Shown: one piece after another, positions 245 through 30,588 of the stretch
Position numbering within the stretch: position 1 is the stretch's first letter
Layout of the letters: each line of letters begins with the position of its first letter
Assembly (NCBI RefSeq): GCF_019656055.1
Contig: NZ_BPKY01000001.1
Coordinates: 310,001-374,000, forward strand
Direction: 5' to 3'
Length of the DNA stretch: 64,000 nt
Origin: Leuconostoc miyukkimchii
GTDB taxonomy: Bacteria; Bacillota; Bacilli; Lactobacillales; Lactobacillaceae
Notes under the pieces: model-generated
What the model saw: only the letters and a program-made list of their open reading frames with translations
Databases searched by the model: none
What the model was told of the DNA's origin: nothing
Made by a program: the position numbers and the translations under genes

Positions 245-265
245 GGTTATTTTTTCCTTTCTCTT

Positions 266-304: not shown

Positions 305-336
305 ACCACATTAAAACATTAGAAAAGGAGGCACCT

Positions 337-534: not shown

Positions 535-537
535 CGC

Positions 538-747
538 ATGATAATAGGCACAGTAGCAATCATCATTGGTGTCGTCTACTTCATGTATGCGGAAGACAAG
601 ATGAATCGTGAAGACGCAGAGAGTGATTATAAGAGCCGTGTTGCAATGGGCGAAGACCCAGCATATGTTGCATGGTCGATTAATCAGGCGGTAGATGATA
701 CAAGATCAATTGACAAAGCAAATCGTGTGTACAAGCAAGGTCGATAA
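538..747 (+). CDS. Small membrane-anchored phage protein of unknown function
   Basis: A 69-residue protein starts three bases after the preceding stop codon, so the two genes are probably co-transcribed. Residues 1-17 are a hydrophobic segment (MIIGTVAIIIGVVYFMY) that should insert in the membrane, and the rest is charged and soluble (DKMNREDAESDYKSR onward). No family was recognised. Such one-helix proteins are common among early genes of temperate Gram-positive phages. The start could also be slightly later, because no strong ribosome-binding site is visible inside the upstream gene. Confidence 0.55.
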   Translation: MIIGTVAIIIGVVYFMYAEDKMNREDAESDYKSRVAMGEDPAYVAWSINQAVDDTRSIDKANRVYKQGR

Positions 748-854
748 AAATAAAAAACGCCCAACTGTTAAGAACTGTTAGACGTAGATATGAAATGTTG
801 TTTTGACACGACATTTATGCTTTCAATTCTAACAAGAAAGAGAGAGGCAGTCAA

Positions 855-3202: not shown

Positions 3203-3264
3203 AAATACTGACAAGTGATGTGGCGTAACCACACGAGAGGGTGAGAGGCCCAATGGAGGAACGC

Positions 3265-4332
3265 ATGGCAGACATTAAATATTTCACACAGATACCAGCA
3301 TGGGTTGATGAACTTGAAGACGTGTCCGACTTTCAAGTGCGTTTACTTGGTTTTATTTATACATTGGAAAATACAGTTGGCTCGGCATTTCCATCGAACG
3401 GTTTTCTTGCCAAGAAATATCGTAAGAAAGAAAATTCAGTTCAAAAAGCGCTGAGTGATCTTTACAAAAAAGGTTATGTCACAAGTAAAGTCAAATATAA
3501 AAATGGTACAAGTGAGGTTGAAAAAAGGTATTTAACTTTAAATCAACCACGTGATTTAAATCATAAAGGTGGTGGATTAAAATCCACTACCCTAGTGGAA
3601 ACAAATCACAGGGGTAGTGGATTAAAGTCCACAGATAGTAAATCATTTAGTAAATCAATGAGTATATCAATACCCCCTACCCCCAAAGGGGATGAAATGG
3701 GTGAGAATGATTTTTCAAATCAAAACCAAATCGATTCAGAATTGCACAACGAAACAAAGGGGAGCGAAGCGACACTTTTAGCAACCCGCGAAGCGAAAGA
3801 AGAAAGCATTGATTTGAATTTGAAGATGTTGCGTTATGCTCGTCTTGCTTTTGGTAAATCAGAAATTGAAGTACCAGATACAACCAAGGGCATGTTCTCT
3901 GGCATTGTGAATCGTAATATTGATTTTCAGAGCTTTATCGATGTGACAAACTATTTAGCAACCAAGTGGACACCAGAATTTATAGCCACCAAGCCCGTTA
4001 TTGCTTATCTGGTAAATATGTCAAAATGGGATGCGCGAGAAAATGAAGCACGGTCAGCTGGATTCATTAACTCAAAATCAGTCGTTGATAAACAAGCAGC
4101 AGTTGAGAATGAACAGGGCAAGCGAGCACGTGAACATGACTTGCAAAGTTTGGCCAATGAACGGTATCCAATTATTAAACGTTTGTATATTGAAAAATAT
4201 GGCCGTGAAAAAATGCCATTGCCGTCATTGCATATGCCAGCATTTGATAACTTGTCAGCTTGGGAAAAATTAGTTAGTGGCGATGAAAAAACTTTGGCGC
4301 ATCTCCACGAAATTGTTGAAGCAGAGGATTAA
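3265..4332 (+). CDS. Phage replication initiator with N-terminal helix-turn-helix
   Basis: The best start is the ATG at 3265, which has GGAGG five bases upstream and gives 355 residues (MADIKYFTQIPAW). An upstream GTG at 3241 is in frame but has a weaker site. Residues 5-90 form a winged-helix domain with FPSNGFLAKKYRKKENSVQKAL as recognition region, as in phage replisome organisers. Residues 95-150 are a repetitive linker. The C-terminal part ends in a conserved-looking segment (IKRLYIEKYGREKMPLP). It is followed six bases later by a DnaB-type helicase, so it is the likely origin-binding initiator and helicase loader. The linker-coding DNA contains the repeats noted at 3572-3632. Confidence 0.75.
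   Translation: MADIKYFTQIPAWVDELEDVSDFQVRLLGFIYTLENTVGSAFPSNGFLAKKYRKKENSVQKALSDLYKKGYVTSKVKYKNGTSEVEKRYLTLNQPRDLNHKGGGLKSTTLVETNHRGSGLKSTDSKSFSKSMSISIPPTPKGDEMGENDFSNQNQIDSELHNETKGSEATLLATREAKEESIDLNLKMLRYARLAFGKSEIEVPDTTKGMFSGIVNRNIDFQSFIDVTNYLATKWTPEFIATKPVIAYLVNMSKWDARENEARSAGFINSKSVVDKQAAVENEQGKRAREHDLQSLANERYPIIKRLYIEKYGREKMPLPSLHMPAFDNLSAWEKLVSGDEKTLAHLHEIVEAED
3572..3632. repeat. Palindromic direct repeats inside the initiator gene, possible phage origin
   Basis: A perfect palindrome GTGGATTAAAATCCAC lies at 3572-3587. A near copy, GTGGATTAAAGTCCAC, lies at 3617-3632, 45 bases further on. Between them CCACTA-CCC-TAGTGG (3584-3598) is a second inverted repeat. The surroundings are AT-rich. 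Many temperate phages keep their replication origin inside the initiator gene, so these could be initiator-binding iterons. They also encode a short peptide repeat (GLKST twice), so protein-level repetition is an alternative explanation. Confidence 0.5.
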
Positions 4333-4337
4333 ATTTT

Positions 4338-5666
4338 ATGTATGAAATACAGATGGAACATCAGTTATTAGGTGCTTTGATGGTATCAAGTGATATTAGT
4401 GGCACGGTGGCTGATATAAATGGACACGTTGTACCGGAAGACTTTTATGATCAACCGGCAAAAGAAATGTTCAGTCGTATTTTAGAACTGGTGGATGATG
4501 GCCACGAAATCAATCCAATTACTTTGGCCACCAAAAATGTGCCACTAGATTTTATTGCTGATATTTCAGTATTGGGTGTCTCATCACACATTGCGGTTAG
4601 TTTAGCTGATAAAGTGGCCAAGCAATCAGAGACACGTAATTTATACATGACAGCGCAACAAGTTATGAGCTATTTAGCAAATGGGGAAGATGTTGATTTG
4701 GTTAAGATGAATCTGATTGAGTATTTATCAGATGGTCGACATGACAAGTTAGAGACAACAAAACATATTAGTGAGGCAGTGGCACCGACACTTGAAAGTA
4801 TTGCAGAACAACGTGAGCAGGAAGGCGTGCCAGGTATCACAACAGGATTTAAGATGATTGACAAAGAGATTGGTGGCTTGTTACCGTCTTCACTGACAAT
4901 TATTGGTGCAAGACCGGCCATGGGAAAAACAGCATTCGCATTGAACATGGCCGAGGGTGCTGCACGTTTGGCCAATAAACCTGTCTTAGTTATTTCACTT
5001 GAAATGAGTAACGACATGTTGGTGAAACGCATGTTGTCAACACGTAGTTTAGTAGATGCTGAAAAAATACGTGATAGCAAACTAACTGATCAAGAATTCA
5101 ATGACTTGAGCTACAATGCGGAAAAACTAAGTCAATTACCTATCTGGTTTGACGACACACCAATTCAAAGTTTCACAGATATTCGTAGTCGTGTGCTTAA
5201 ATTAAAACGTCAACAAGGTGAAATAGGCATGGTGCTGATTGATTATCTTGGCTTGGTTGAAACTGGTAATAAAAAAAATAGTAGCAGAGTTAACGAAGTA
5301 GCAAAAATTAGTCGTGGTTTGAAAGTATTGAGTAAAGAAATTAAAGCGCCTGTGGTTGCTTTAGCACAGCTTAATCGTGGTGTTGAACAGCGAACAGATA
5401 AACGACCATTGCTGTCTGATTTGCGAGATAGCGGCTCTATTGAACAGGATGCCGACAATGTGGCGTTCTTGTATCGTGACGATTATTATCGCAATGAAGG
5501 TGAAGAAGAAAAGAGTGATGATGAAATTTCACAAGTAGAATTCATTGTGGCCAAGAATAGAAATGGTAAACGCGGAACTGTGCCATTGTCATTTGATAAA
5601 AAGCACAACCTCATGACTGATTGGCGACCAAGTCATCAGTCAACTAATACAGATCAAGGGTGGTAG
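4338..5666 (+). CDS. dnaB: Replicative DNA helicase, DnaB family (phage)
   Basis: A 442-residue protein with the N-terminal DnaB domain (EHQLLGALMVSSDIS, residues 6-100) and the C-terminal RecA-like motor. Walker A is GARPAMGKTAFA near residue 190, a Walker B-like strand MVLIDYLGLV is near 300, and DLRDSGSIEQDAD near 365 is the conserved DnaB segment. Length and both domains are complete. It directly follows the initiator gene, as helicase and loader often do in phage replication modules. The gene shows no sign of damage, in contrast to the packaging genes downstream. Confidence 0.92.
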   Translation: MYEIQMEHQLLGALMVSSDISGTVADINGHVVPEDFYDQPAKEMFSRILELVDDGHEINPITLATKNVPLDFIADISVLGVSSHIAVSLADKVAKQSETRNLYMTAQQVMSYLANGEDVDLVKMNLIEYLSDGRHDKLETTKHISEAVAPTLESIAEQREQEGVPGITTGFKMIDKEIGGLLPSSLTIIGARPAMGKTAFALNMAEGAARLANKPVLVISLEMSNDMLVKRMLSTRSLVDAEKIRDSKLTDQEFNDLSYNAEKLSQLPIWFDDTPIQSFTDIRSRVLKLKRQQGEIGMVLIDYLGLVETGNKKNSSRVNEVAKISRGLKVLSKEIKAPVVALAQLNRGVEQRTDKRPLLSDLRDSGSIEQDADNVAFLYRDDYYRNEGEEEKSDDEISQVEFIVAKNRNGKRGTVPLSFDKKHNLMTDWRPSHQSTNTDQGW

Positions 5667-5842
5667 AAAGCGTGTATACAGGAGATGAAAGTTTTGAAGA
5701 AGCAGATGCGAGCTACACCATCAATTTAATTAATGGTGTCACGCGTGATTATTGGACAGGTTCTCAAACTGCAGAAATGACGGTTAAGAAAATACTTGAA
5801 AAAATTAACATGCATAAGGATCGTGTCAGAATGGAAGGGTAA
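5660..5842 (+). CDS. Small acidic phage protein of unknown function
   Basis: A 60-residue frame begins with a GTG at 5660 inside the end of the helicase gene; a second GTG at 5672 is an alternative start. The protein (residues 7-45: TGDESFEEADASYTINLING and onward) contains a predicted amphipathic C-terminal helix (VKKILEKINMHKDR). It stops two bases before the next gene. Tight packing between two phage genes supports expression, but no family was recognised and the exact start is uncertain. Confidence 0.5.
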   Translation: MVESVYTGDESFEEADASYTINLINGVTRDYWTGSQTAEMTVKKILEKINMHKDRVRMEG

Positions 5843-5844
5843 GT

Positions 5845-6531
5845 ATGCCACGTGAATATTCTGGTAAGGCAGTTTCATATGACGGTGAGAACTTAGTAAT
5901 TAATGTTGGCCACATTGAAATTGATTGGCAAAAGTTATTACGATACAACAAAGGCGATGCCCCAAAAGTTGAATTAGTATTTGATGATCAGCAACGACGC
6001 TCATTATTACAGAATAAACACATGCATGCCATTATCAGTGATATTGCGAACTGGCAAGGAGAGGATCCAGAGGAAATTAAAATGTGGTTTAAATGGGCCT
6101 TTGCAAATGCATTTGAATTAGACGAAATCAAAACAAGCAGAATGTCAATGGAGCAAGCTAGTGCATTTATTAGTATGCTGATTACTTTTGCATTAAAACA
6201 TGGTGTGGCATTAGTAAACTACGCACCACTAGAAATGCTTGCGCCAGATGATGTTGCTGCATTTGAATACCAATGTCTTATTCACAAACGTTGTGTGATT
6301 TGTGGTAAACATCCAAGTGATTTACACCATCTAGATACAGTTGGCGCAAATGGCGGTAATCGTGGCCAGATGAATCATCTCAGATTACGTGCAGTGCAAT
6401 TATGTCGAGAGCATCATCAAATGGCTGGACAAATTGGCGTTGATACATTTTTAGCACGATATCATCTCACAGGCATCAAGATAGATGAAGACATTGCGAA
6501 GATACACAAATTGAATATGAGGTCGCTATGA
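5845..6531 (+). CDS. Putative HNH-type nuclease (phage, HNHc_6-like)
   Basis: A 228-residue protein. The N-terminal 140 residues match the helper domain seen in phage proteins called putative HNHc nuclease. The C-terminal third carries the zinc/HNH-like site: CVICGKHPSDLHHLD, then NHLRLRAVQLCREHHQ. Two cysteine pairs and the HH and HLD histidines give a plausible metal centre. In related phages such proteins sit between the helicase and the late regulator and are thought to process recombination or replication intermediates, somewhat like NinG/Rap. It overlaps the next small gene by four bases. Confidence 0.75.
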   Translation: MPREYSGKAVSYDGENLVINVGHIEIDWQKLLRYNKGDAPKVELVFDDQQRRSLLQNKHMHAIISDIANWQGEDPEEIKMWFKWAFANAFELDEIKTSRMSMEQASAFISMLITFALKHGVALVNYAPLEMLAPDDVAAFEYQCLIHKRCVICGKHPSDLHHLDTVGANGGNRGQMNHLRLRAVQLCREHHQMAGQIGVDTFLARYHLTGIKIDEDIAKIHKLNMRSL

Positions 6532-6683
6532 TTAAATATATCGTCAGTGAGGACAAGGTGCCACATAAAGAGACACTTGGGAGGATGTCATATCATCTTG
6601 CTGTGGCAGTTCAACAATTGATTGGCGGTGAAATTTATGCGATTGATGATGTCGCGCACACGATAAGGAAGATAGAACAATAA
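6528..6683 (+). CDS. Small phage protein, 51 residues
   Basis: The ATG at 6528 overlaps the stop of the nuclease gene (ATGA), giving translational coupling. The 51-residue product begins MIKYIVSEDKVPHKETLGRM and ends AIDDVAHTIRKIEQ. It is probably a small alpha/beta protein; no family was recognised. Codon use matches the neighbours. A GC-containing hairpin (GCAGG-TGTG-CCTGC, about 6733-6747) lies between it and the late regulator. Confidence 0.5.
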   Translation: MIKYIVSEDKVPHKETLGRMSYHLAVAVQQLIGGEIYAIDDVAHTIRKIEQ

Positions 6684-6775
6684 CACAACAAGCTCTATCT
6701 AATATGACTATTCATAAATTTTAGTCAAGATGGCAGGTGTGCCTGCTGTACATACAGTTAAGGAGAGATAGTAAT

Positions 6776-7219
6776 TTGGCTTATGATCGCGATAAAACAA
6801 TAAAAAGAGTATCTGAATTTTTTGGTGATCCAAATGCTGTGAATAAGCCATCTGATTTTAAAGATTTGCTTGATTTGGCCCACATCACTAACGTTGATTC
6901 ATTATATCGTTCTCCAACTATATCCGACATGCCTATGAATAGCTCATTTGGTAATCATATGGAAGAGTCAACAATTAACTATCTGTTTGGTGGAGATGTT
7001 GCAAAGTCAGAAGTCAACAAAATCGCAATGGCTTTGCGCAACATGGAGCACAGATTTAGCCACGTGATATTCTTGCGCCACTTTAAGGGGATGAACATTG
7101 AAAGTATAGCTGAGGCGATTGGCTATTCACCTAGCAACGTCCGTAAATTGTTGGATACGGCATATTACAAGTTTGCCCTTTGGACGGAAGAAAATCTCAA
7201 ACTTACAGTTTTAGTGTAG
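6776..7219 (+). CDS. ArpU-family phage late transcription regulator
   Basis: The likely start is a TTG at 6776, nine bases after AGGAGAG. This gives 147 residues beginning LAYDRDKTIKRVSEF; upstream in-frame codons have no ribosome-binding site. The C-terminal 55 residues (FLRHFKGMNIESIAEAIGYSP then VRKLLDTAYYKF) form a sigma-70 region 4-like helix-turn-helix, typical of ArpU-type activators. In related phages this protein is the last early gene and switches on packaging, structural and lysis genes. It sits right before the former packaging region, which fits. Confidence 0.8.
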   Translation: MAYDRDKTIKRVSEFFGDPNAVNKPSDFKDLLDLAHITNVDSLYRSPTISDMPMNSSFGNHMEESTINYLFGGDVAKSEVNKIAMALRNMEHRFSHVIFLRHFKGMNIESIAEAIGYSPSNVRKLLDTAYYKFALWTEENLKLTVLV

Positions 7220-7339
7220 ATTCGGTGTATATTGAGTGGCGGCAGAGTGTGATGAAATCGTGTATATTAGTATTATTGAAAGATTCGTAAATCAGCATTA
7301 CAGTTAATGTGTTTGTTTAATTAAAAATATTGAACAACG

Positions 7340-7369
7340 TTTAACATTTAGACAAAAAAGGTGTACTAT
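7340..7369 (+). promoter_or_regulatory. Promoter with extended -10 for a short transcript
   Basis: TTTAAC (7340-7345), an 18-base spacer and TACTAT (7364-7369) preceded by TG give a sigma-A promoter. It points at the structured region 7376-7490. No phage gene starts directly behind it. Confidence 0.6.
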
Positions 7370-7375
7370 GTAACT

Positions 7376-7490
7376 GTGGATGGAAACATCCATAATCTTC
7401 ATGATATCTCCCTATAAGGGAACAACTCCACAAAATACATCAATTGGAATATTGATGATGAAATAAGAACCCTAACCGGTTCTTATTTTG
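7376..7490 (+). ncRNA. Possible structured small RNA in the prophage
   Basis: Downstream of the promoter lies about 115 bases with no useful ORF but dense pairing. TGTGGA (7375-7380 region) can pair with TCCACA (7427-7432) to close a domain holding ATG-GAAA-CAT and TCCC-TATAA-GGGA (7409-7421). A separate hairpin CATCAAT-ATTGATG follows (7438-7457). An intrinsic terminator AATAAGAACC/GGTTCTTATT with T-run ends it (7462-7489). Promoter, compact folds and terminator argue for an independent small RNA. No Rfam family was recognised, and it could instead be an attenuated leader of the next gene, though that gene has its own promoter. Confidence 0.5.
7461..7490 (+). terminator. Intrinsic terminator
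   Basis: A ten-base stem AATAAGAACC (7462-7471) pairs with GGTTCTTATT (7478-7487) over a CTAACC loop, followed by TTG and TTT. It ends the putative small RNA. Confidence 0.75.
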
Positions 7491-7524
7491 TTTACGGTAT
7501 ATTTTGTTGAAAACAAACGTATTT

Positions 7525-7554
7525 TTGCAAATTATTCAACAGAAGGTGTAAAAT
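7525..7554 (+). promoter_or_regulatory. Promoter of the DUF308 gene
   Basis: TTGCAA (7525-7530), an 18-base spacer and TAAAAT (7549-7554). It lies between the upstream terminator and the DUF308 start at 7586, so the gene can be transcribed independently of the phage operons. Confidence 0.55.
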
Positions 7555-7585
7555 AGTTTGTATAAAAATTAGAGGGAGATATTAG

Positions 7586-8122
7586 ATGTCAGATGAGTTT
7601 TTTAACAAGTTACGTCGTACAATAGGGTTTGATGGGCTGATTTCAACTGTAATAGGCGCTTTGATAGTGTTTTTACCCAATCGTAGCGCTCGAGCAGCAG
7701 CTGGAATGATAGGAGCTGCTTTAATCGCTGTTGGATTATTCAAATTACTATCAGTATTTAAACGTGATTTGGAAAATGGAATGGCTAGATTAGGAAACTT
7801 GATTGTTTCAATCATATATCTTGTTGCCGGTATTTTCATTTTTATCGATATGCAATCAGCAGCTATTTCACTAATTCTGGTTGTAGGTATATTAACAGGT
7901 ATGACATGGTTGATTGAAGGTTTAGTTCAATTTACGATTGTTAATCGAATTAGCACGAATAAGACTTGGTCGATTGTTTCTGCGTTAGTTAGTATATTGG
8001 GAGGATTAAGCCTTCTGCTCAGTCCGGTATTTGGCGGACTGATTGTCTGGACATTTTTTGGAGCGTCATTATTAATTGTTGGTATTTTCAAGTTGATTCA
8101 ATATTTTACTTTGAAAAATTAA
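7586..8122 (+). CDS. DUF308 (HdeD-like) membrane protein, prophage cargo
   Basis: A 178-residue membrane protein with about six hydrophobic helices, for example LISTVIGALIVFLPN, MIGAALIAVGLFKLL and SALVSILGGLSLLL. Repeated G-rich helices, LIVGIFKLIQYF near the end and the overall length fit the DUF308/HdeD family. HdeD itself is linked to acid resistance in enterics; the function of Gram-positive members is not established. It has GAGGGAGAT as ribosome-binding site, its own promoter and its own terminator, and lies between early and packaging phage genes. That layout is typical of a moron, a gene carried for the benefit of the lysogen. Confidence 0.8.
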   Translation: MSDEFFNKLRRTIGFDGLISTVIGALIVFLPNRSARAAAGMIGAALIAVGLFKLLSVFKRDLENGMARLGNLIVSIIYLVAGIFIFIDMQSAAISLILVVGILTGMTWLIEGLVQFTIVNRISTNKTWSIVSALVSILGGLSLLLSPVFGGLIVWTFFGASLLIVGIFKLIQYFTLKN

Positions 8123-8132
8123 TCAGTATATG

Positions 8133-8167
8133 AAACCGCTAGTTAGTTAAATCTAACGGCGGTTTTT
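8133..8167 (+). terminator. Intrinsic terminator after DUF308 gene
   Basis: AAACCGC (8133-8139) pairs with GCGGTTT (8159-8165) with an inner GTTAG/CTAAC stem, followed by a T-run. Confidence 0.8.
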
Positions 8168-8181
8168 GTTTGGAGAAAATT

Positions 8182-8379
8182 ATGGAAGAAACGTTAAAAA
8201 CAATACGCAGACGTGCAAAGCACATTAAAATAGCCACACAAGTGAATAAGCAACATGCTGATAATTTGAAACGCGCGACGTTTGAACGGCATAAACGTTC
8301 CAAGCAACAAATTAAGACAGAAGTTGTGGACAATCGTGTGATAGATTATCGTAGGCACATGAAGTGGTTGAGGCGATGA
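8182..8379 (+). CDS. Small very basic phage protein
   Basis: The ATG at 8182, with TTGGAG eight bases upstream, gives a 65-residue protein very rich in K, R and H (METLK-type start MEETLKTIRRRAKHIKIATQ, end YRRHMKWLRR). The basic charge suggests nucleic-acid binding, but no family was recognised. The start and upstream 12 bases are nearly repeated at 10682-10792, where the copy is broken. It follows directly on the DUF308 terminator, whose T-run overlaps its leader. Confidence 0.5.
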   Translation: MEETLKTIRRRAKHIKIATQVNKQHADNLKRATFERHKRSKQQIKTEVVDNRVIDYRRHMKWLRR

Positions 8380-8443
8380 TAATAAAATCTTAAATAACGG
8401 TTCGGCCATCTGATGGTATGATTGTTGCTATTGGAGGTTGGAT

Positions 8444-8602
8444 ATGAAACGAAAACGTATAATTGCTATCTACACAGGGATAATAGCAGCCGTAGCTTTT
8501 TTGGTAACAGAACATTTAGGATTGGATTTAGGTAAGTCCATATTCATATCAGTTGTCGCTGTCGTTGTTGGAAGTGTATTACTGGAAAAGTTTATAAAGT
8601 GA
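8444..8602 (+). CDS. Small two-helix membrane protein
   Basis: The ATG at 8444 follows a TTGGAGG site and gives 52 residues: a basic start (MKRKR), a hydrophobic helix (IIAIYTGIIAAVAFLV), a short loop (TEHLGLDLGKS) and a second hydrophobic helix (IFISVVAVVVGSVLLEKF). It is followed directly by its own terminator. The topology resembles small phage membrane proteins of unknown function; holin activity is possible but nothing specific shows it. Confidence 0.6.
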   Translation: MKRKRIIAIYTGIIAAVAFLVTEHLGLDLGKSIFISVVAVVVGSVLLEKFIK

Positions 8603-8604
8603 TT

Positions 8605-8627
8605 AAGCGCATAAGCGCTTTTTATTT
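8605..8627 (+). terminator. Intrinsic terminator
   Basis: AAGCGC-ATAA-GCGCTT hairpin (8605-8620) followed by TTTATTTT. Confidence 0.75.
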
Positions 8628-8663
8628 TGAGCTAAATCATTGAAAGGAGGTACTTTAAATGAC

Positions 8664-9470
8664 ATGAAAAAGTATGAAGAAGCCGAGCAAGATTATTTAG
8701 CAGGCTCTAAGTATCAAGATATTGCCGATAAATACGATGTATCTCTTTCAACTGTTAAACAGTGGAAACGTAGATATTGGAAATCTGATAATGTAACCAC
8801 AGATAAAAAGGTTACAAAAAAAGTTACAAAGGTTACACAGAAAAAACCAACTAAAAAAGCTATTGAAGAGTTAAGTAACAGCGAGCTAACAGACAAGCAA
8901 AAAGCCTTCGTACTGTAGTATATTCGTATTTCTAATGCCATACAAGCGTACATAAATATTTACGATGTGCCATACAGAACTGCTAGGGTTAGTGGTTCTC
9001 GTATGTTGACAAATGATAACATTCAAAACGAAATAAAGCGTCTACACCAAGCTAAATTACAAGAGCTTAGTGTGGGCGTTTTTGATTTAATGGAAGACAT
9101 AGTGGTTGAAGCACGGGCTGATATTGGCGACTATGTTAAATTTGGTGCGTATGATGAAACGTTGTATGAATATAAAGATGGTAAGCCTGATAAAAATAAA
9201 CCAGTGTTGGATGATGAAGGCAATCCCATTAAGTTACACAAATCCTGGGCACAATTCAAAAATCAGGAATTTGTTGATAGTAAAGCAATTAAGTCTATAC
9301 GAATGGGTAAAGATGGTCCAGTAATTGAGTTGCACGATCGCAATAGAGCACGTGACAAATTACTGGAAATGATGGGTGATTATGTTAAGAATGATGAGGC
9401 AGAAGATGGCTTAATCAACGCAATTAAGCAGAGTCAAGTATTTGGAGAAAACGATGGCATCGAAACGTAA
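8664..9470 (+). pseudogene. terS: Phage terminase small subunit, split by an in-frame amber codon
   Basis: From the ATG at 8664 (GAAAGGAGG upstream) the frame encodes a DNA-binding N-terminus (YEEAEQDYLAGSKYQDIADK, a helix-turn-helix) and the conserved ELTDKQKAFVL. A TAG at 8916-8918 then stops it, after 84 residues. The same frame continues without shift as YYIRISNAIQAYINIYDVPY and on to 9470, matching the rest of terminase_2-type small subunits (ARADIGDYVKFG). So a single nonsense mutation disrupts an otherwise full gene of about 268 codons. Packaging initiation should be lost unless an amber suppressor exists. Confidence 0.8.
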
Positions 9471-10125
9471 AATTAATGCCAAATTTGATTTCAAACCTTT
9501 CTCAACAAGGCAAATGCAAGTAATGGCATGGTGGACAAATCCACTTTATCGGGATAAAGAAGCCATTATTGCTGATGGTTCGGTTCGTGCTGGTAAAACT
9601 GTTGTCATGTCATTGGGTTATATTGTGTGGTCCATGGCGGAGTTTAACGGTCACAACTTTGGAATGGCTGGTAAAACGATTGGCTCATATAGTGAGGAAC
9701 ATAAAAATGAAATTTATGTTGGATTAGCACCGGCAATACTACAATCTGCTGGCAGATACGGCACTAGTATTGTAACTAAATCAAGTTACTCCAAGAGGGT
9801 TGAAAAAGATGATACGGTTCAGCAGGCTCAAACTAATATTACAATTAGAATCAACTTTTATTTTACTGGAGATCCGTTAGTCCAATTACAAGTTTCAGAA
9901 CAAGAATTATCTCAATCACAAAATGTAATGCAAAAAATATGGAATGCTGCTGTGTGGTCAGAAGCAGAGGTTGCTCAAATGTTAATGTCTACTGTTGGAA
10001 TGATTCAAAATGGTGTAGAATCTCTGCAAGTTAGTGATGGAAATATTTCTGGAACCACTGCAGTGTTATCAGCTTCCACTGTGTTGTTGATTGTTTCAGT
10101 GTTTGTTGTTACCATTATCGTATAG
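9454..10125 (+). pseudogene. terL: Terminase large subunit N-terminus fused to unrelated sequence
   Basis: The ATG at 9454 follows TTTGGAG and overlaps the end of terS. Residues 1-78 are a normal large-terminase start, with FSTRQMQVMAWWTNPLYRDK and the Walker A-like motif DGSVRAGKT, up to FGMAGKTIGS. At about 9690 the expected terminase sequence stops. The frame continues for about 145 residues of unrelated protein that ends in a long hydrophobic stretch (STVLLIVSVFVVTIIV). The rest of the ATPase domain and the whole nuclease domain are gone, so no packaging motor can be made. The fused tail was not recognised. The junction probably marks a deletion or insertion breakpoint. Confidence 0.75.
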
Positions 10126-10156
10126 ATAAATAATTATTTTATGAAATGAGAAATGA

Positions 10157-10573
10157 ATGTTGACTCATACACTAGCGTCATTGTTTCTAGAAGGTATAAT
10201 TTTATACAGTGCAATAACGTTTTCTTTGTTAGTAGTTAAGCTTAGGAAAAATAAAATTATTCCAAGAAAAGTAATGCAGCAGGTTTATCAAAAAAACATA
10301 TATAAATGGCTTTTTACGTCAATATATAGTTCACAATTTATTTTTATTTTTTTAATATACTTCAGTAATATTCATATAGATAAAGGTAATATATATTTAC
10401 TTCAGCTTTTTACGATATTGATTTTGTTTTTACTTGAATTAGTAGCTTATGTTAGAGTAGTGAGAAATAGTATATTTTTCAAACAATCACTTGAAAGAAA
10501 ATTTGTAAAAAAAGTTTTTCAAATATTTTATATAGTGCAGTTTGTTTTTCTGTTAATGCCAATATTAAATTAA
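10157..10573 (+). CDS. Four-helix membrane protein of unknown function
   Basis: A 138-residue protein with four predicted membrane helices: about residues 6-28, 49-70, 79-99 and 117-136. Between helices 1 and 2 lies a basic loop (KLRKNKIIPRKVMQQVYQKN). It follows the hydrophobic tail of the terminase fusion by 31 bases, and the region is more AT-rich than the phage genes before it, which suggests inserted DNA. The ATG at 10157 has only a weak ribosome-binding site; an in-frame alternative was not seen. No family was recognised. An immunity or transport role would be a guess. Confidence 0.5.
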   Translation: MLTHTLASLFLEGIILYSAITFSLLVVKLRKNKIIPRKVMQQVYQKNIYKWLFTSIYSSQFIFIFLIYFSNIHIDKGNIYLLQLFTILILFLLELVAYVRVVRNSIFFKQSLERKFVKKVFQIFYIVQFVFLLMPILN

Positions 10574-10640
10574 TAGGCAATGTTGAAAAAAGATTATTTA
10601 AAATGAATTATAACTATACTTGAAAAAGTAAAAAATACAC

Positions 10641-10685
10641 GGTCCAATTTGCGAATCTGAAACCGATACGCAGATTGGATCTTTT
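10641..10685 (+). terminator. Intrinsic terminator after the membrane protein gene
   Basis: GGTCCAATTTGCG (10641 on) pairs with CGCAGATTGGATC (ending 10681), followed by TTTTG. The same placement, with a terminator T-run overlapping a TTTGGAGAAAATTA leader, occurs at 8133-8182. Confidence 0.65.
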
Positions 10686-10792
10686 GTTTGGAGAAAATTA
10701 GGGCAGGAACACTAAAAACAATACGTAGACATGTGACTCATATTACAATCACATGCAAGTGAACAGAAGACAGGTTGATAGCTTGGAACGCC
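10682..10792 (+). pseudogene. Degraded second copy of the small basic phage gene at 8182
   Basis: The leader TTTTGTTTGGAGAAAATTA is shared exactly with 8165-8183, and the following 90 bases align with the start of the 8182 gene without gaps (shared AAAAACAATACG and AGAC). The ATG has become AGG, and the frame contains stops. It joins directly to tail-fibre sequence at about 10790. This looks like a relic of duplication or recombination between two phage modules. Confidence 0.6.
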
Positions 10793-11564
10793 TGATGACA
10801 CTTTGTTTTGGGAGTTTAAAAATAACCGTTCATTAAGAACACCAACTAATAATCTTTTAACTGAAAACGGTGGTAAGTAGAATTTTAAAACAGATAATGG
10901 TGTAAAAATGATTATAGGTGCTGATTTAGATGGAATCGCATTAGGAGCCTCATCGCCTAAATCTAATGGCATACCAGTAAATACTAACCTTAACAATATA
11001 AAGACTGATGGATTTTACACGTTTCAATCTGGAAGCATAACTAATAGTCCAGTGTTATAATATTTTTCTCTAACCGTAGTAACAATCGGACAAAATAACG
11101 GGACACAAACTTTAATTGACAGCGATACTGGCGTTACATGGACTAGAGGTTGGAAAGTCAACGGTGTTTTCAGTGAGTGGACAAGCAATGTTCCAAAGTC
11201 TGCTAGTGTTTTAGTATACGGATTAGGTACATTATTTGATGCATCAACATATTTAACTTTCGTTAAATATGGGAATGTTGTTACAGTGTACGGTACTTTA
11301 GATGCTGCAAAAGATATAACGGGACTAGCTAGTTACAACGGAGAAAATCTAACACCAGTTGGATATCGGCCATTGCGAGAAGTTAAGTCACAAATTTCAC
11401 ATAATTCTTCTAATGGAGGAAACAAGGTAAGAGGAGACGTATCATATGGAGCTAGTGGTAACATCTCAATAGATGATGTTACCATTGGTGGTTCTGATGT
11501 CATGAATGGCACAATACTAAAGGGAATAACGTTGACATTCTCAGCTACTTGGGTCACGTCATGA
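10793..11564 (+). pseudogene. Tail fibre / receptor-binding protein C-terminus with two stop codons
   Basis: One frame reads continuously from about 10793 to the TGA at 11564 except for TAG at 10878-10880 and TAA at 11058-11060. The translation has typical phage fibre content: LRTPTNNLLTENGGK, then GADLDGIALGA, NLNNIKTDGFYTF, IGQNNGTQTLIDSDTGVTW and a beta-rich C-terminus (VTVYGTLDAAKDITG). The N-terminus of the fibre is absent. The last 92 codons are open from a GTG at 11286 but have no convincing ribosome-binding site. This is the only structural gene left, so tail assembly is not possible from this locus. Confidence 0.75.
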
Positions 11565-11592
11565 TAAAAAAATGGAAGGTACAAAAGTAAAC

Positions 11593-12051
11593 ATGGATCA
11601 ACTACTACAATATTTATTTGCCAACCTGAATGGGGCTACCGAAACGGCAGTCCTTTTTATTTTGGTTTTTTTTGACACGTTTTTAGGATCGCTGTGGCGA
11701 AAACGTCAAGGTGTTGCCAGAACTTCAGGAGGTGGGTTGGGCGGGTTAATTACATCAATACCATTGGCATTGATGCCTGTTGTTATATGGGCGTTTACAA
11801 TTTTGATTTCTTACGTACCAACCCATTTAGGTGGACGTGATTTTACGTTTCAACCACTCATTTTTGATGTTATTTCATTCGCGGTAACGTTAATAATTGG
11901 CAACTACATGCTGAAATCAGTTTACGCCAATATGCAACTAGCTGGCATGGATATTCCAAAATGGGCCATTAAATGGGTGGAAGACGAGTATCACGTTAAA
12001 TTACGAAAAATTGAAACAGAGCCAGGAGCGGTTAGTAAAAAGGAGAATTAG
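11593..12051 (+). CDS. Phage holin
   Basis: About 152 residues from the ATG at 11593, which has GGAAGG upstream; an in-frame ATG at 11572 would add seven residues but lacks a site. Three hydrophobic helices (TAVLFILVFFDTFLG, IPLALMPVVIWAFTILISYV and FDVISFAVTLIIGNYML) are followed by a charged C-terminal tail (VEDEYHVKLRKIETE). Topology, length and a place directly before the endolysin fit phage holins of the Lactobacillales type. It would permeabilise the membrane and release the lysin. It appears intact. Confidence 0.8.
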   Translation: MDQLLQYLFANLNGATETAVLFILVFFDTFLGSLWRKRQGVARTSGGGLGGLITSIPLALMPVVIWAFTILISYVPTHLGGRDFTFQPLIFDVISFAVTLIIGNYMLKSVYANMQLAGMDIPKWAIKWVEDEYHVKLRKIETEPGAVSKKEN

Positions 12052-12052
12052 T

Positions 12053-13030
12053 ATGGGATATATAATTGAACGCAATATCGTAGTGCCAGGTCGTCCAGCA
12101 TTGGACAACGGCCTTGCTGTTGGACCGTTTGGACAAACCCATTTACACTCCACAGCTAATGAAAATGCAACAATGGACGGTGAAGTTTCTTATTTAAGCC
12201 GGAATTGGCCAAACGGATATTATACACATTTAGTTGGTGGTGGCGGTCGTATTATTCAAGTCGCTGAAACAAACGGTGGTGCATTTGACGTTGGAGGCGA
12301 TTGGAACTGGGAAACATATGCTGCAATCGAATTCTCGGAGAACATTAAAAATCAAGCGGATTTCAATAAGTCATATCGCGCTTACATCTGGTTGGCTCGG
12401 AAATTGGCAGATGAATGTGGTGCAAACTATGATCTAGATGACAATGATTTAGTTGGTATCAAGACCCATAACTTTGCCAGTCGAACTGGACACGGTTCAG
12501 ATCATACTGACCCTATTGCATTTCTTGCTAAATGGGGAATTTCTTATCAACAACTCAAGAATGATTTGATTAATGGCTTTGACGAAGCGCCAGTTCCGGC
12601 TGCTAAGTTTAAGGTTGGCGACCAAATTGTGCTTACTAAAGAAGCTTATGCAACGCGTTGGGGAACTAAGTTTAACAATGCTGTTAAAACATCTTGGGGT
12701 ACGGTTAGAAAGGTTGATAGAGCTGCACAATCTAAGTCACAATACTCATACGGTATCGACTTTAGTGGTCGTATATGGAACGTGTTAGAACAAGATTTGA
12801 TTAAGCGACCATCTCAACCGGCTAAGAAAGTTGGAGGTTTCAAGGTTGGCCAAGTTGTGACTTTGAAGTCATCAGCAAGTCATTGGCAGACTGGACAGCC
12901 AATCAAGAATTTTGCTAAAAACAAACAATACAAAATTAAGAGTGTTAAGGCAGTTAATCAGTCAAATAGTAATCAAGCGGTATTACTTGAAGGTGTGATT
13001 AGTTGGGCATTGGCTCAAGATGTGAAATAA
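12053..13030 (+). CDS. lys: Endolysin: N-acetylmuramoyl-L-alanine amidase with C-terminal wall-binding repeats
   Basis: The ATG at 12053 has AAGGAG upstream and gives 325 residues. Residues 1-170 are an Amidase_2/PGRP domain with zinc-ligand histidines in GQTHLHSTAN and SDHTDPIAFL and the core YYTHLVGGGGRIIQ. Residues 180-325 contain two SH3-like repeats, each starting with FKVGD or FKVGQ plus IVLT or VVTL and a tryptophan motif. The enzyme cleaves the bond between muramic acid and L-alanine. No signal peptide is present, so export depends on the holin. It looks full-length and functional. Confidence 0.9.
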   Translation: MGYIIERNIVVPGRPALDNGLAVGPFGQTHLHSTANENATMDGEVSYLSRNWPNGYYTHLVGGGGRIIQVAETNGGAFDVGGDWNWETYAAIEFSENIKNQADFNKSYRAYIWLARKLADECGANYDLDDNDLVGIKTHNFASRTGHGSDHTDPIAFLAKWGISYQQLKNDLINGFDEAPVPAAKFKVGDQIVLTKEAYATRWGTKFNNAVKTSWGTVRKVDRAAQSKSQYSYGIDFSGRIWNVLEQDLIKRPSQPAKKVGGFKVGQVVTLKSSASHWQTGQPIKNFAKNKQYKIKSVKAVNQSNSNQAVLLEGVISWALAQDVK

Positions 13031-13092: not shown

Positions 13093-13482
13093 TTAATGAT
13101 TAAAATTGCTCTGATTCAATGTCCAGCGTGATTCAGAAGTTGTAGGAAGTATCATCAAAATGAAGAACCAGATATTACCAATTAATGGAATTGCAGAAAT
13201 AAGTATCCAACCAGCACTACGGTTTGTATCATGCAAACGTCTTGCTTTCACAGTCAATGTCGCAATCCATACGAGTAAAGCGATTAATTTAGCCACTGTG
13301 TTTGTTGATAAATCGCTAAAATTGTAAATATCCTCAAGTGAATGTCCTTGTATTTTTTCAATAACATTTATTAAAATACCACCAATTAAATAGTTGACGA
13401 TAATAGGAATCCAGTATTGCGCTCTTGTTGCAGTTGCGTTCCACACAAACATCTTTGTCCAAAATTCTTTATAAGCATTCAT
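13093..13482 (-). CDS. DUF805 membrane protein
   Basis: A 129-residue protein on the minus strand with AGGGGGAAA before the ATG. It has four hydrophobic helices and the family signature ARRLHDTNRSAGW near residue 85, plus the start FWTKMFVWNATATRAQYW. DUF805 proteins are inner or cytoplasmic membrane proteins of unknown function, frequent in prophages and stress islands. Its orientation is opposite to the lysis genes and it follows their terminator, the usual location for lysogenic-conversion cargo. Confidence 0.85.
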   Translation of the reverse strand: MNAYKEFWTKMFVWNATATRAQYWIPIIVNYLIGGILINVIEKIQGHSLEDIYNFSDLSTNTVAKLIALLVWIATLTVKARRLHDTNRSAGWILISAIPLIGNIWFFILMILPTTSESRWTLNQSNFNH

Positions 13483-13619: not shown

Positions 13620-13838
13620 ATGTCAATTGAAGAAAAGTTTGATAGCGCCAAGGACAAAGTTGCGGGTAAGGCAAAAGAGGTAGAAGGCAAAGTTACCGGT
13701 GACAAGAGTCGCGAAGCAGAAGGTAAAGCACAAGGTGTTCTAGGTAAAGTGAAAGATACGGTCACAGACGTAAAAGACGCTGTTAAGGATGCTGTAGATG
13801 ATACTGTAAAAGATTTTAAAGACGACAGTAAAAAATAA
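13620..13838 (+). CDS. CsbD-like stress protein (copy 1)
   Basis: A 72-residue hydrophilic protein ([20 protein letters not shown], then [20 protein letters not shown]) of the CsbD family. These are small, natively flexible proteins induced by general stress in Bacillus (there under sigma B, absent from lactic bacteria). It is nearly identical over its first 50 residues to the protein at 27546; this copy has four extra residues in the C-terminal VKDAV repeat. The ribosome-binding site is CAAGGAG. Lying inside the likely prophage limits, it may be a cargo copy captured from, or donated to, the chromosome. Confidence 0.85.
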   Translation: MSIEEKFDSAKDKVAGKAKEVEGKVTGDKSREAEGKAQGVLGKVKDTVTDVKDAVKDAVDDTVKDFKDDSKK

Positions 13839-13912
13839 ATAGAAAAGTAAGTTCTTGGAAGTACATTATTATTTTGACTAGATATTATTCTAGTTTTTTT
13901 ATTTGCAAATAA

Positions 13913-13924
13913 AAACATTTGTTC
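13913..13924. promoter_or_regulatory. LexA-like box in the prophage right end
   Basis: AAACATTTGTTC differs by one base from the perfect box GAACATTTGTTC before yhaO and equals the box before lexA. It lies about 25 bases upstream of the broken small gene at 13949 and could put it under SOS control. Confidence 0.5.
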
Positions 13925-13948
13925 GATTAATGTCATAGAGTTGATATT

Positions 13949-14208
13949 ATGAACACGACGACAAATTAATCGAAGAAATCAAGAAGCGATTCACGAAAAA
14001 GAAAAACACATTGTATTGGGTGCGTATCGTGTACCAAAGATATTCCAAGCAGTTGAACGTGTTCTTTGAATATGCCAAAATAGGTATGGCCACACATTCT
14101 GAACAAATAGGCAGGTATGTTGAATCAGAAAAGGATCATATGCTAGAATTAGCGAAACGTATCAAAACAGAAACAAACGTAAGTGTGGAACTAGGTGATT
14201 TCGAGTAA
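13949..14208 (+). pseudogene. Small phage-type gene with a frameshift just after the start
   Basis: An ATG at 13949 leads to a stop after six codons (MNTTTN). One base shifted, an open frame runs from 13951 to 14208 (EHDDKLIEEIKKRFTKKKN, then VYQRYSKQLNVFFEYAKIG and ending SVELGDFE). Loss of one G after the ATG (ATGGAACAC to ATGAACAC) would explain both. A shorter product could still start at a TTG at 14011 (65 residues). The family was not recognised. It is followed by a strong terminator and preceded by a LexA-like box, so it was probably an SOS-induced phage gene. Confidence 0.5.
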
Positions 14209-14209
14209 A

Positions 14210-14243
14210 ACACCCAACCAGTGATTCGGTTGGGTGTTTTTGT
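14210..14243 (+). terminator. Intrinsic terminator
   Basis: ACACCCAACC pairs with GGTTGGGTGT over an AGTGATTC loop, followed by TTTT. Confidence 0.9.
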
Positions 14244-14306
14244 GTTGTTTTGTGTTGTTTTATGCTATAATCGAATAAGTTTTTTATCAAAATAAAAGGT
14301 AAGTTG

Positions 14307-15095
14307 ATGTTAAAAGTAAAAACAGTAGTTGAACAAATGAAAGTTGGCACGAGCAAACCATTTTTAGTAGTTTGTGATGATGATCAGCAATATGTCATGA
14401 AATATAGTGTACGACAAGCTGAAAATTCAAAGGCATTGTTCAATGAACTTTTAGGATACCACATTATTGACTTTTTAAAACTAAATCATCCAGAATTTCA
14501 ATGTGCAAAGTTAAGTCAAGATACGGTAAGTGAAAATGTTGATCTGTTTGATGCTGAACCAAAAGTTGGAACGGTTTTTGTTACAAAGTATCATAATTAT
14601 ACACCAGCTGCTGTTCCAAATATATTAAAAAGCGCTACTAACATAGACACATTTTTAGGAATCATTTTTTATGACCAATTTATTGTTAATATTGATAGAG
14701 GATTGAATAGAGGTAACTGGTTAATTGATAGGAAGGATATGAAATTAAATGTTGTTGATAATGACAGAATCTTAAAGCAACAACAATTTTGGACACCTGC
14801 TACGCTTAAAGAAATTAGTAAAATACCTCCTTTTGAAATTGAAGCATTAGAGGATGTAGAATATGAGTATCTACTAGAAGCGTATGGCGACACTCATGGT
14901 AAACATAGCTTTGATCATATTGTGCGAAAAGTAAAAAGCATTAGTCCTGATATTGTGGACGAATGGTTATCAGATATTCCCGTTGATTGGTTAATAACAG
15001 AAACCGATAAATTAGCAATTAAAGAGTTTATTTTATTTCAAGTGAGACATGTAGAAGAAATAGTTGATTATTTAGTTGTTAAATTCAGCATTTAG
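14307..15095 (+). CDS. HipA-like kinase domain protein
   Basis: The ATG at 14307 has AAAGG upstream and gives 262 residues. Visible kinase elements are a glycine/lysine N-lobe (GTSKPFLVVCDDDQQYVMKY, with K32 as candidate ATP-binding lysine), a catalytic-loop-like FIVNIDRGLNRGNWLI (D130, N137) and a metal-binding-like VVDNDRIL (D151-D153). This is the stand-alone HipA-like domain known to occur next to DUF3037 genes, which is the arrangement here (13 bases between the genes). Unlike HipA toxins it has no HipB-type HTH partner. A TATAAT with extended TG lies at 14266-14271. The substrate is unknown; all kinase residues appear intact. Confidence 0.75.
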   Translation: MLKVKTVVEQMKVGTSKPFLVVCDDDQQYVMKYSVRQAENSKALFNELLGYHIIDFLKLNHPEFQCAKLSQDTVSENVDLFDAEPKVGTVFVTKYHNYTPAAVPNILKSATNIDTFLGIIFYDQFIVNIDRGLNRGNWLIDRKDMKLNVVDNDRILKQQQFWTPATLKEISKIPPFEIEALEDVEYEYLLEAYGDTHGKHSFDHIVRKVKSISPDIVDEWLSDIPVDWLITETDKLAIKEFILFQVRHVEEIVDYLVVKFSI

Positions 15096-15108
15096 AAAGG
15101 AGAGAATT

Positions 15109-15930
15109 ATGGCAGAAGTAGAATTACTATATAGCGTCTTGGGCTATAGGCCAAGTTCAATAAGGCGTGAGTCTATGAATATCGGAATAGTTTTTCACAT
15201 ACCCCAAAAAGGATATTCAAAATTCATATCTTTAAAATCTAGAAAAAGACTAGAAACATTTGATGATGAGTATGATAAAAATTTCTTTAATATAGTAATG
15301 GAGTCTTTAAGATATCAGTTTGATTATCCCAGGGAAAACATAGCTGGAGAATATAGTAGGTTTGAGGACAAAGAATTTTCAAAAATCCGTGATAAAGATT
15401 TTTTGATTAGCAAGACGAAGTACTATGCTAATGAGTTTTATTTTTTCAATGTGCAAGGAATATCAGTTGAAGACAATCAAGAAGCACTCCAAAAAGAAAT
15501 GCATGGGCTAGAAAGAATATATTTATATTATGATCGCCCAAAAAATGAGCGTGTCACAAAAAGCGAAGTGAAAAAACTGCTATCTAAGCAGATAAAATAT
15601 AATAAAATTACTGGTATAAAACGGCTTCCAAAAGAATTTATTGGTAATTTTGATAAATCTCCAATATTTGATTATCAAATTGGGGACTCGGTTATCAAAA
15701 TTATTACATTTGACTATGCCAAAAAAGGTAATCTTTCAAAAGAATTAAAAAGTGTGCTCTATGACATTGAACATATAGATAATATGAATAAGACCTTATC
15801 ATTTATTATAAATGATGAGGCTGTTGATGAAAAAAATCAAGATTTAAAAGAATTTGAAGGACAACTTAAAAATATAACCAATAATTTTTCGATAATTGGC
15901 GTTTCTCGGTTCATGACGCAAAAGTTCTAA
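15109..15930 (+). CDS. DUF3037 domain protein, partner of the HipA-like kinase
   Basis: The start at 15109 is set by AAAGGAGAG and gives 273 residues. The N-terminus (LLYSVLGYRPSSIRRESMNI then GIVFHIP) matches DUF3037, whose members begin with a Y-S-V/RY-P strand and an E-x-x-N-x-G motif. The C-terminal half is charged and probably helical. DUF3037 genes are regularly adjacent to HipA-like kinase genes, and the two here form a small operon ending in a terminator. Function is not established. Position at the far end of a prophage suggests host takeover, exclusion or addiction, but that is inference. Confidence 0.75.
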   Translation: MAEVELLYSVLGYRPSSIRRESMNIGIVFHIPQKGYSKFISLKSRKRLETFDDEYDKNFFNIVMESLRYQFDYPRENIAGEYSRFEDKEFSKIRDKDFLISKTKYYANEFYFFNVQGISVEDNQEALQKEMHGLERIYLYYDRPKNERVTKSEVKKLLSKQIKYNKITGIKRLPKEFIGNFDKSPIFDYQIGDSVIKIITFDYAKKGNLSKELKSVLYDIEHIDNMNKTLSFIINDEAVDEKNQDLKEFEGQLKNITNNFSIIGVSRFMTQKF

Positions 15931-15983
15931 AAATTATATTAATGATATTCATTTTCCTATCAATCTGCATAATTAAACACATA

Positions 15984-16019
15984 AAAACTCGACTAGATTC
16001 ATCTCTAGTCGAGTTTTTA
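15984..16019 (+). terminator. Strong terminator after the HipA-like/DUF3037 operon
   Basis: AAAAACTCGACTAGA pairs with TCTAGTCGAGTTTTT over a short loop. Confidence 0.9.
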
Positions 16020-16046
16020 TGTGTGCGCCTATTATACAAATATTTT

Positions 16047-16068: not shown

Positions 16069-16146
16069 AGCAATTATTTTATGGTAAGTAAATACATGTG
16101 TATCAACTATTTTATTAAAAAGGTTCACGGTACGCTATCTCCTTAT

Positions 16147-30574: not shown

Positions 30575-30588
30575 TATTAGGTTGTTAG

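What the first reader, a model, noticed from the sequence alone, without database searches (positions are those of the whole stretch)
14307..15930. Intact HipA-like kinase plus DUF3037 pair at a prophage end
While the surrounding phage genes are broken, this two-gene operon is complete, with candidate kinase residues K32, D130, N137 and D151-D153 and its own promoter and terminator. It sits where temperate phages carry exclusion or addiction genes. The pairing of HipA-like and DUF3037 genes is known as a neighbourhood, but its function is not settled. Retention in a decaying prophage suggests selection, or an addiction effect.
Basis: partly seen in the sequence, partly recalled or inferred. 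Interest (0 to 1): 0.75.

Follow-up and report, generated by a model that had tools for sequence, protein, structure and literature searches.

The report
Prophage HipA-kinase/DUF3037 phage-defence pair
Near one end of a decaying prophage in a bacterium related to lactobacilli lies an intact two-gene module, a HipA-like kinase and its DUF3037 partner, of a kind recently shown in other bacteria to defend against phages; it is a new member of that known kind, and in many different phages such pairs sit next to the cell-lysis genes.

Summary
Window 14307-15095 encodes a HipA_2 kinase and 15109-15930 a DUF3037 protein, both open, with a -10-like element and a closing hairpin. The prophage runs from a tRNA-Ser(cga) gene to window 16144, 20.5 kb; the pair ends 202 bp inside attR. 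PADLOC models call it PDC-M66A/B. The function of the kind is no longer open: a HipA/DUF3037 pair found beside Retron-Sda1 blocks phage Bas51, with kinase as toxin and DUF3037 as neutraliser (PMC12548924); DS-6, renamed HipAD, needs a catalytic residue (PMC13092281). K32, D130, N137 and D151 are invariant in 19 of 19 aligned kinases; D153 is not. In 395 genomes of the order, 7 have DUF3037, each with the kinase beside it. In 12 of 19 kinase lineages a lysis gene of one of several types lies within 2.3 kb. DUF1829, present in DS-6B, was not detected; the C-terminal half weakly resembles PD-(D/E)XK folds. Verdict: a new Gram-positive prophage member of a known toxin-antitoxin-like defence kind. 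This copy was not tested.

The parts
14307..15095 (+). HipA_2-type kinase (262 aa), predicted toxin/effector; G14-x-S16-x-P18 turn, K32, E47, D123, N128, D130, N137, D151
   Evidence: Pfam HipA_2 57.5 bits, PDC-M66A 48.9 bits, phrog_3162; invariant residues; model pLDDT 88.6, structural matches CtkA Z 16.6, HipT 12.1, HipA 11.5; D130 and N137 align with E. coli HipA D309 and N314
15109..15930 (+). DUF3037 protein (273 aa), predicted neutralising partner; N-terminal DUF3037 domain plus C-terminal alpha/beta part
   Evidence: Pfam DUF3037 31.1 bits over residues 8-68, PDC-M66B 20.2 bits, phrog_7610; model pLDDT 83.1
15535..15927 (+). C-terminal region of the DUF3037 protein (residue 143 onward): DUF1829 not detected; weak fold resemblance to PD-(D/E)XK proteins, with the middle acid position non-acidic
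14263..14271 (+). extended -10 element (TGCTATAAT) of a proposed promoter for the pair
   Evidence: sequence; same element in L026, TATAAT at -41 in both; not listed by the scan
14207..14240 (+). terminator-like hairpin between the upstream ORF and the pair
   Evidence: a hairpin of other sequence stands at this place in L026, read by eye in the output
15977..16024 (.). perfect inverted repeat (21-nt arms, 6-nt loop) that closes the operon
16133..16144 (.). attR core, identical to the 3' end of tRNA-Ser(cga) at attL (G000:C1:305618-305629)
12047..13030 (+). endolysin (Amidase_2) of the prophage, 1276 bp before the kinase gene
   Evidence: Pfam Amidase_2 33.8 bits; phrog_1110 endolysin; distance
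13954..14208 (+). companion ORF of no known family; its start region is out of frame here, and in L026 its relative lies downstream of the pair

Best explanation
The pair is a prophage-borne member of the HipAD / DS-6 / PDC-M66 kind, a toxin-antitoxin-like abortive-infection cassette. By homology, the kinase would phosphorylate a host target and stop growth; the DUF3037 protein holds it inactive in the lysogen and may also bind DNA; infection by another phage upsets the complex, frees the kinase and aborts the infection. Shown here: both genes open, catalytic residues conserved, pairing conserved, a place just inside attR, and near-identical pairs beside different lysis genes. Inferred from tested relatives: neutralisation, defence, need for kinase activity. 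Not known: target, trigger, and whether this copy is active.
For: PDC-M66A/B on both genes. Tested relatives: in the operon of Retron-Sda1 (Sphingobacterium, tested in E. coli) kinase deletion ends defence and DUF3037 deletion is toxic (PMC12548924, passages); mutating a key predicted catalytic residue of DS-6A loses defence, and AlphaFold3 predicts a DS-6A/DS-6B complex at ipTM 0.76-0.79 (PMC13092281, passages). Kinase residues invariant in 19 of 19 rows. DUF3037 in 7 of 395 genomes of the order, the window's own included, with the kinase beside it in 7 of 7. 17 of 18 kinase-retrieved viral loci carry DUF3037; the 18th ends at its contig edge, and a genome with the same sequence over 7,478 bp carries it. 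Kinase fold near CtkA, PI4K type II, HipT and HipA. Low dN/dS between two alleles. Similar pairs beside different lysis genes in two cases.
Against: No activity was measured. The DUF3037 and PDC-M66B scores are modest; at E 0.001 PDC-M66B misses 3 of 5 and PDC-M66A 1 of 5 related proteins scanned. DUF1829 of DS-6B is not detected. 4 of 19 lineages show no phage context in view. 3 of 10 genomes with a kinase match lack DUF3037 and were not examined. The sigma-70 scan did not list the proposed promoter.
Confidence: 0.77

Rival explanations
1. Addiction module: the pair mainly harms cells that lose the prophage, and phage defence is a side effect. This would explain its survival in a prophage that lacks structural genes.
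For: Other genes decay while the pair stays open; toxin-neutraliser logic in a tested relative.
Against: Tested relatives act in phage challenge. One chromosomal lineage adjoins Vsr/McrBC restriction genes. No data on stability of the partner or on prophage loss.
Confidence: 0.12
2. Neutral passenger: an open but functionless remnant that has not yet decayed.
For: The prophage is degraded; the start region of the neighbouring companion ORF is out of frame.
Against: dN/dS of 0.10 and 0.07 against the L026 allele; conserved catalytic residues and -10 element.
Confidence: 0.08
3. Non-toxin regulator: a PI4K/CtkA-like kinase that modifies a phage or host protein to tune lysis or lysogeny, with DUF3037 as its adaptor; this would explain the place beside lysis genes.
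For: The best structural match is CtkA, then PI4K type II and actin-fragmin kinase, ahead of HipA; a lysis gene within 2.3 kb in 12 of 19 lineages.
Against: The pair seems to have its own transcription signals; some chromosomal members show no lysis genes in view; a tested relative is toxic without DUF3037.
Confidence: 0.03

Closest known systems
HipAD / DS-6 (DefensePredictor, PMC13092281; source paper Brenes and Laub 2025 seen only as a reference entry)
   Same: HipA-like kinase plus DUF3037 protein; the title of the source paper places it in E. coli prophages
   Different: DS-6B carries DUF3037 plus DUF1829; DUF1829 is not detected here. I had no DS-6 sequence to align.
PDC-M66 (PADLOC) and the HipA/DUF3037 pair beside Retron-Sda1 (PMC12548924)
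   Same: Both genes hit the PDC-M66A/B models; the paper reports the kinase as toxin and DUF3037 as its neutraliser
   Different: The Sda1 pair lies with a retron RT, and its DUF3037 C-terminus resembles a type III-A1 retron DNA-binding protein; I saw no retron part among the ORFs near 14307-15930, by eye
HipBA / HipBST toxin-antitoxin systems
   Same: Kinase fold (HipT Z 12.1, HipA Z 11.5); D130 and N137 align with HipA D309 and N314; S or T at residue 16 in 19 of 19 rows, which may correspond to the Gly-rich-loop Ser150 of HipA (PMC10627512, passages; the correspondence is inference)
   Different: The partner is DUF3037, not a HipB-type HTH protein or HipS; the kinase aligns with HipA from about residue 125 on, so the N-terminal subdomain of HipA is absent
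PDC-M03A (PADLOC)
   Same: Weak kinase match over part of the protein (24.5 bits)
   Different: PDC-M66A scores 48.9 bits over nearly the whole protein

Membership tests
HipAD / DS-6 / PDC-M66 | HipA-like kinase with catalytic residues | tested here: met
HipAD / DS-6 / PDC-M66 | DUF3037 partner gene directly adjacent on the same strand | tested here: met
   13 bp between the ORFs
HipAD / DS-6 | DUF1829 domain in the DUF3037 protein, as in DS-6B | tested here: inconclusive
   A Pfam scan at E up to 1 did not list DUF1829; hhalign against 9 DUF1829 proteins gave 5% probability, E 0.007, colinear, for the full-length profile and 0.3% for the C-terminal part. Whether DUF1829 is required for the kind is not established; the Sda1 protein has another C-terminus.
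HipAD / DS-6 / PDC-M66 | Kinase toxicity neutralised by DUF3037, and phage defence | not testable with these tools
   needs expression and plaque assays
HipBA | HipB-type helix-turn-helix antitoxin gene next to the kinase | tested here: not met
   The adjacent downstream gene is DUF3037; the ORFs of 60 aa or more upstream to 13093 are CsbD, DUF805 and a no-match ORF. ORFs under 60 aa were not listed.
HipBST | separate HipS subunit in the operon | tested here: not met
   Two genes lie between the hairpins at 14207-14240 and 15977-16024; the partner is DUF3037
PD-(D/E)XK fold (C-terminal part of the DUF3037 protein) | alpha/beta core with D and (D/E)xK in place | tested here: inconclusive
   Many names that I recall as PD-(D/E)XK-type are among the top structural matches, but Z is at most 8.0 and GTPases, ACLY and CD38 follow at 5-6; no Foldseek match at E 0.001. 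In 17 rows D188 is D in 17, residue 197 is K in 16 and R in 1, and residue 195, where the middle acid would stand, is acidic in none.

The most novel reading that the evidence does not exclude
The DUF3037 protein is a two-part sensor-antitoxin: its N-terminal domain holds the kinase, and its C-terminal part is an exchangeable nucleic-acid module (a degenerate, catalytically dead PD-(D/E)XK-like domain in these Gram-positive phages, DUF1829 in DS-6B, a retron DNA-binding-protein-like part in Sda1) that reads phage DNA or its processing and releases the kinase. The whole cassette moves between phages as cargo beside the lysis genes.
Probability: 0.22. Interest if true: 0.6.

Novelty: new member of a known kind. 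Interest (0 to 1): 0.36.

Why it matters
The tested members come from E. coli and Sphingobacterium and were tested in E. coli. This one carries the kind into prophages of Gram-positive hosts and shows a repeated location, next to lysis genes of several types. That gives a place to look for more cargo, and a compact pair in which the trigger-sensing part of a kinase-based defence could be worked out.

Tried and rejected
Retron association: none seen by eye among the ORFs near the pair, and the three Rfam matches of the window at gathering score are two tRNAs and an L21 leader. Plasmids: no match for either protein or for the DNA. Phage records: 1 of 50,697 matched the kinase and none the DUF3037 protein at E 1e-5; that one record does hold a DUF3037 gene downstream, seen when its stretch was searched in a small set. 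NCBIfam: no match. With the phylum sample, 1 of 398 genomes matched phrog_7610, the window's own; with 150 relatives, 3 matched PF11236, the window's own included, and the control genome Bacteroides ihuae rang in both searches.

DUF3037 as a known fold: no Foldseek hit at E 0.001; sequence profiles against solved structures gave only weak hits (best E 0.031 and 0.16). The kinase profile gave PI4K type II first, at E 0.025. DUF1829 as the C-terminal domain: weak, not accepted. The HipAD source paper is not held. What I say of print rests on searches of an open-licence library; listings of 18 and 111 gave nothing that I used beyond PMC13092281.

Rows left out: the lysis-gene count used 21 loci (19 lineages). 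Left out as copies: L006, L018-L024, L002, L003, L034, L041, L042 and L088 (98% or more identical over the best stretch to a kept row; L005 and L007 are the same contig as L026 by name); L030 and L031 (95% to L028); L040 and L025 (88% to L039 over 3.1 kb, same record, with the same kinase match figures as L009); L009 (clusters with L039). The lysin type of L039 was read from its relative L009. The kinase start of L028 was set by alignment, not at a start codon, so its distances are approximate. In L032 and L033 I looked at neighbours by eye plus one Pfam scan each, so a lysis gene further off is not excluded.

Full report
What is there. The two ORFs are open and lie on the plus strand, 14307-15095 and 15109-15930, 13 bp apart. 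The first is a HipA_2 kinase (57.5 bits, cut-off 27), the second a DUF3037 protein (31.1 bits, cut-off 22.6). PADLOC models name them PDC-M66A (48.9 bits) and PDC-M66B (20.2 bits); PHROGs match families of unknown function; NCBIfam is silent. The pair is 30.2% G+C, against 37.6% for window 1-13000 (prophage) and 36.6% for 20001-60000.

Host. No tool named the organism. A same-family genome, G040, holds a 34,129-base contig with a pair, which fits the named contig of Apilactobacillus xinyiensis of the same length; so the family is that of Apilactobacillus, by inference.

Where it lies. The integrase (phrog_1) is at L010:15777-16955 on the minus strand; L010 is G000:C1:290001-310000. A tRNA-Ser(cga) ends at L010:15628. 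A 12-bp core is shared by L010:15618-15629 and window 16133-16144 and occurs twice in the 84 kb examined, both strands counted. Of 20 relatives searched with the right flank, three matched its first bases and were fetched. In two of them, G010 and G011, about 1 kb of left flank (88% identical) runs to the end of the tRNA-Ser and the right flank follows at the next base; the right-flank match there is short, 66 and 55 bp at 76% and 80%, and the next match comes about 2 kb on. This is the empty site. The third, G006, has that stretch behind a tRNA-Glu. So the prophage spans G000:C1:305618-326144, 20,527 bp, and 202 bp lie between the pair and the attR core.

State of the prophage. The small terminase is split over two ORFs that match successive parts of phrog_2606. 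A 227-aa ORF at 9442 looks to me like the start of a large terminase but matched no Pfam or PHROG family. The ORFs scanned at 10157, 11286 and 11572 matched none either, and only 1.4 kb lies between 10125 and 11572, so most head and tail genes are absent. Sak4-like, SSB, replication-initiation and DnaB-like genes and the Amidase_2 endolysin are open. 'Broken' is therefore partly right.

Expression signals. TGCTATAAT lies at 14263-14271; the same element is in L026. The scan did not list it, since the -35 is poor; that scan found 24 promoter-like sites against 13.1 in shuffles, so single sites mean little. Exact TATAAT within 45 nt of the kinase start occurs in 8 of 20 loci read (window, L026, L027, L087, L028, L038, L039, L009); these include related pairs of loci, and the L028 start is approximate. 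A terminator-like hairpin at 14207-14240 stands before the pair, and an inverted repeat with 21-nt arms closes it at 15977-16024.

Kinase. In 19 aligned kinases (17 lineages at 90% identity) G14, P18, K32, L44, N46, E47, D123, N128, D130, R131, N137, D151 and W162 are invariant. Residue 16 is S in 2 and T in 17 of 19. D153 is not conserved. Profile alignment with E. coli HipA (E 1.1e-4, probability 57%) pairs D130 with D309 and N137 with N314; K32 and D151 lie outside that alignment. The model (pLDDT 88.6) matches CtkA (Z 16.6, 221 residues, 3.8 A), PI4K type II (13.7), actin-fragmin kinase (13.5), HipT (12.1) and HipA (11.5). Auto-phosphorylation of a Gly-rich-loop serine regulates HipA (PMC10627512, passages); a like role for residue 16 is inference.

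DUF3037 protein. Y13, G26, F51, D52, D53, E54, N108, F112, L139, K145, R148 and D188 are invariant in 17 rows. The model (pLDDT 83.1) has a C-terminal alpha/beta part whose structural matches include BstEII (Z 8.0), an ASFV polymerase subunit (7.5), an XPB-Bax1 chain (7.4), Upx (7.1), Cdn1 (7.0), BglII (6.8), XisH-type proteins (6.5, 6.1), Can2 (6.4) and Vsr (5.9), but also ACLY, GTPases and CD38 at 5-6. The tool warns that Z under 8 may be a common arrangement, so a PD-(D/E)XK relation is a lead only. If it holds, the domain is probably inactive: D188 is kept in 17 of 17 rows and K197 in 16, but residue 195 is never acidic. DUF1829 is not found by Pfam and only weakly by profile comparison.

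Relatives. In viral contigs the kinase profile found 18 loci; 17 have DUF3037 downstream, and the 18th, L037, stops at its contig end. A genome with the same sequence, 100% over 7,478 bp, has the DUF3037 gene. Of 395 genomes of the order, the window's own included, 10 had a kinase match and 7 a DUF3037 match; all 7 have the two side by side. So the pair is rare, and DUF3037 is not seen there without the kinase, while 3 of 10 genomes with a kinase match lack DUF3037.

Neighbourhood. For 21 loci (19 kinase lineages at 90% identity) I looked for an endolysin near the pair. 12 of 19 have one within 2.3 kb: in 10 it is upstream on the same strand, in 2 convergent downstream. The types are Amidase_2, GH25, Amidase_5, Amidase_3, Peptidase_M15/VanY and, in L043, only a cell-wall-binding part. 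Two of 19 (L032, L033) are viral contigs with the pair near regulator-like genes, in L033 also a recombinase; L090 has terminase and portal domains 2.3 kb upstream; four (L014, L015, L016, L089) show no phage context in view. Of these, L015 lies beside Vsr and McrBC, L016 near a SIR2_2 match below its cut-off, and L089 beside a Wzz gene. Viral contigs are phage by selection, so the phage share is biased; I had no null model for the lysis adjacency, and this end of such phages is a known cargo region (recalled).

Mobility. The window's pair and that of L026 are 96% identical in both proteins, while their endolysins share no BLASTP match at E 1. DNA similarity runs over window 14228-16023 (93.5%); a second block, 13895-14208 (87%), lies on the other side of the pair in L026. 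In a second case L029 and L087 have identical kinase and DUF3037 proteins behind endolysins that share a 139-residue stretch (94%) but have different catalytic domains, Amidase_3 and Amidase_2. dN and dS between the window and L026 alleles are 0.018 and 0.168 for the kinase, 0.020 and 0.287 for DUF3037 (NG86).

What is known. PMC12548924 (passages) reports that the HipA/DUF3037 pair beside Retron-Sda1 of Sphingobacterium daejeonense, called PDC-M66 by PADLOC, gives defence against Bas51 in an E. coli strain without need of the RT or ncRNA; deleting the kinase ends defence and deleting DUF3037 is toxic. PMC13092281 (passages and part of the reference list) reports DS-6, renamed HipAD, from a screen of 69 E. 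coli strains: DUF3037 and DUF1829 in DS-6B, a predicted complex, and loss of defence on mutation of a catalytic residue. Its source is a paper on E. coli prophages that I could not read. Hence this is a new member of a known kind. I did not see the Gram-positive prophage setting or the lysis-gene location in those passages; my searches for print were few.

Limits. No complex was folded. Nothing here shows that this copy is active.

Noticed in passing
window 13895-14208 and L026:9705-10018: A companion ORF flanks the pair on opposite sides in two phages; the start region of the window copy is out of frame. It matches no Pfam or PHROG family.
   Followed up: partly
window 7586-8122, 13093-13482 (-), 13620-13838: DUF308, DUF805 and CsbD genes lie inside the prophage bounds; the DUF805 one matches a PHROG filed under moron and host takeover.
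   Followed up: partly
L090:1801-3462: One 553-aa frame holds large-terminase domains and the start of an SPP1-type portal protein, as if a deletion had fused them, near another HipA_2/DUF3037 pair.
   Followed up: no
L043:7974-8803: The kinase reading frame is cut short (218 aa, then a 63-aa ORF) while its DUF3037 gene is open.
   Followed up: no
L015:9481-14532: A HipA_2/DUF3037 pair in a bacterial genome lies beside Vsr, McrBC and AAA genes, a defence-island setting.
   Followed up: partly
G602, G729, G110 (L076-L078): Kinase-like matches in genomes without a DUF3037 match; the one in G602 holds a stop codon.
   Followed up: no
window 30588-30671: Ribosomal protein L21 leader (Rfam RF00559).
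   Followed up: no
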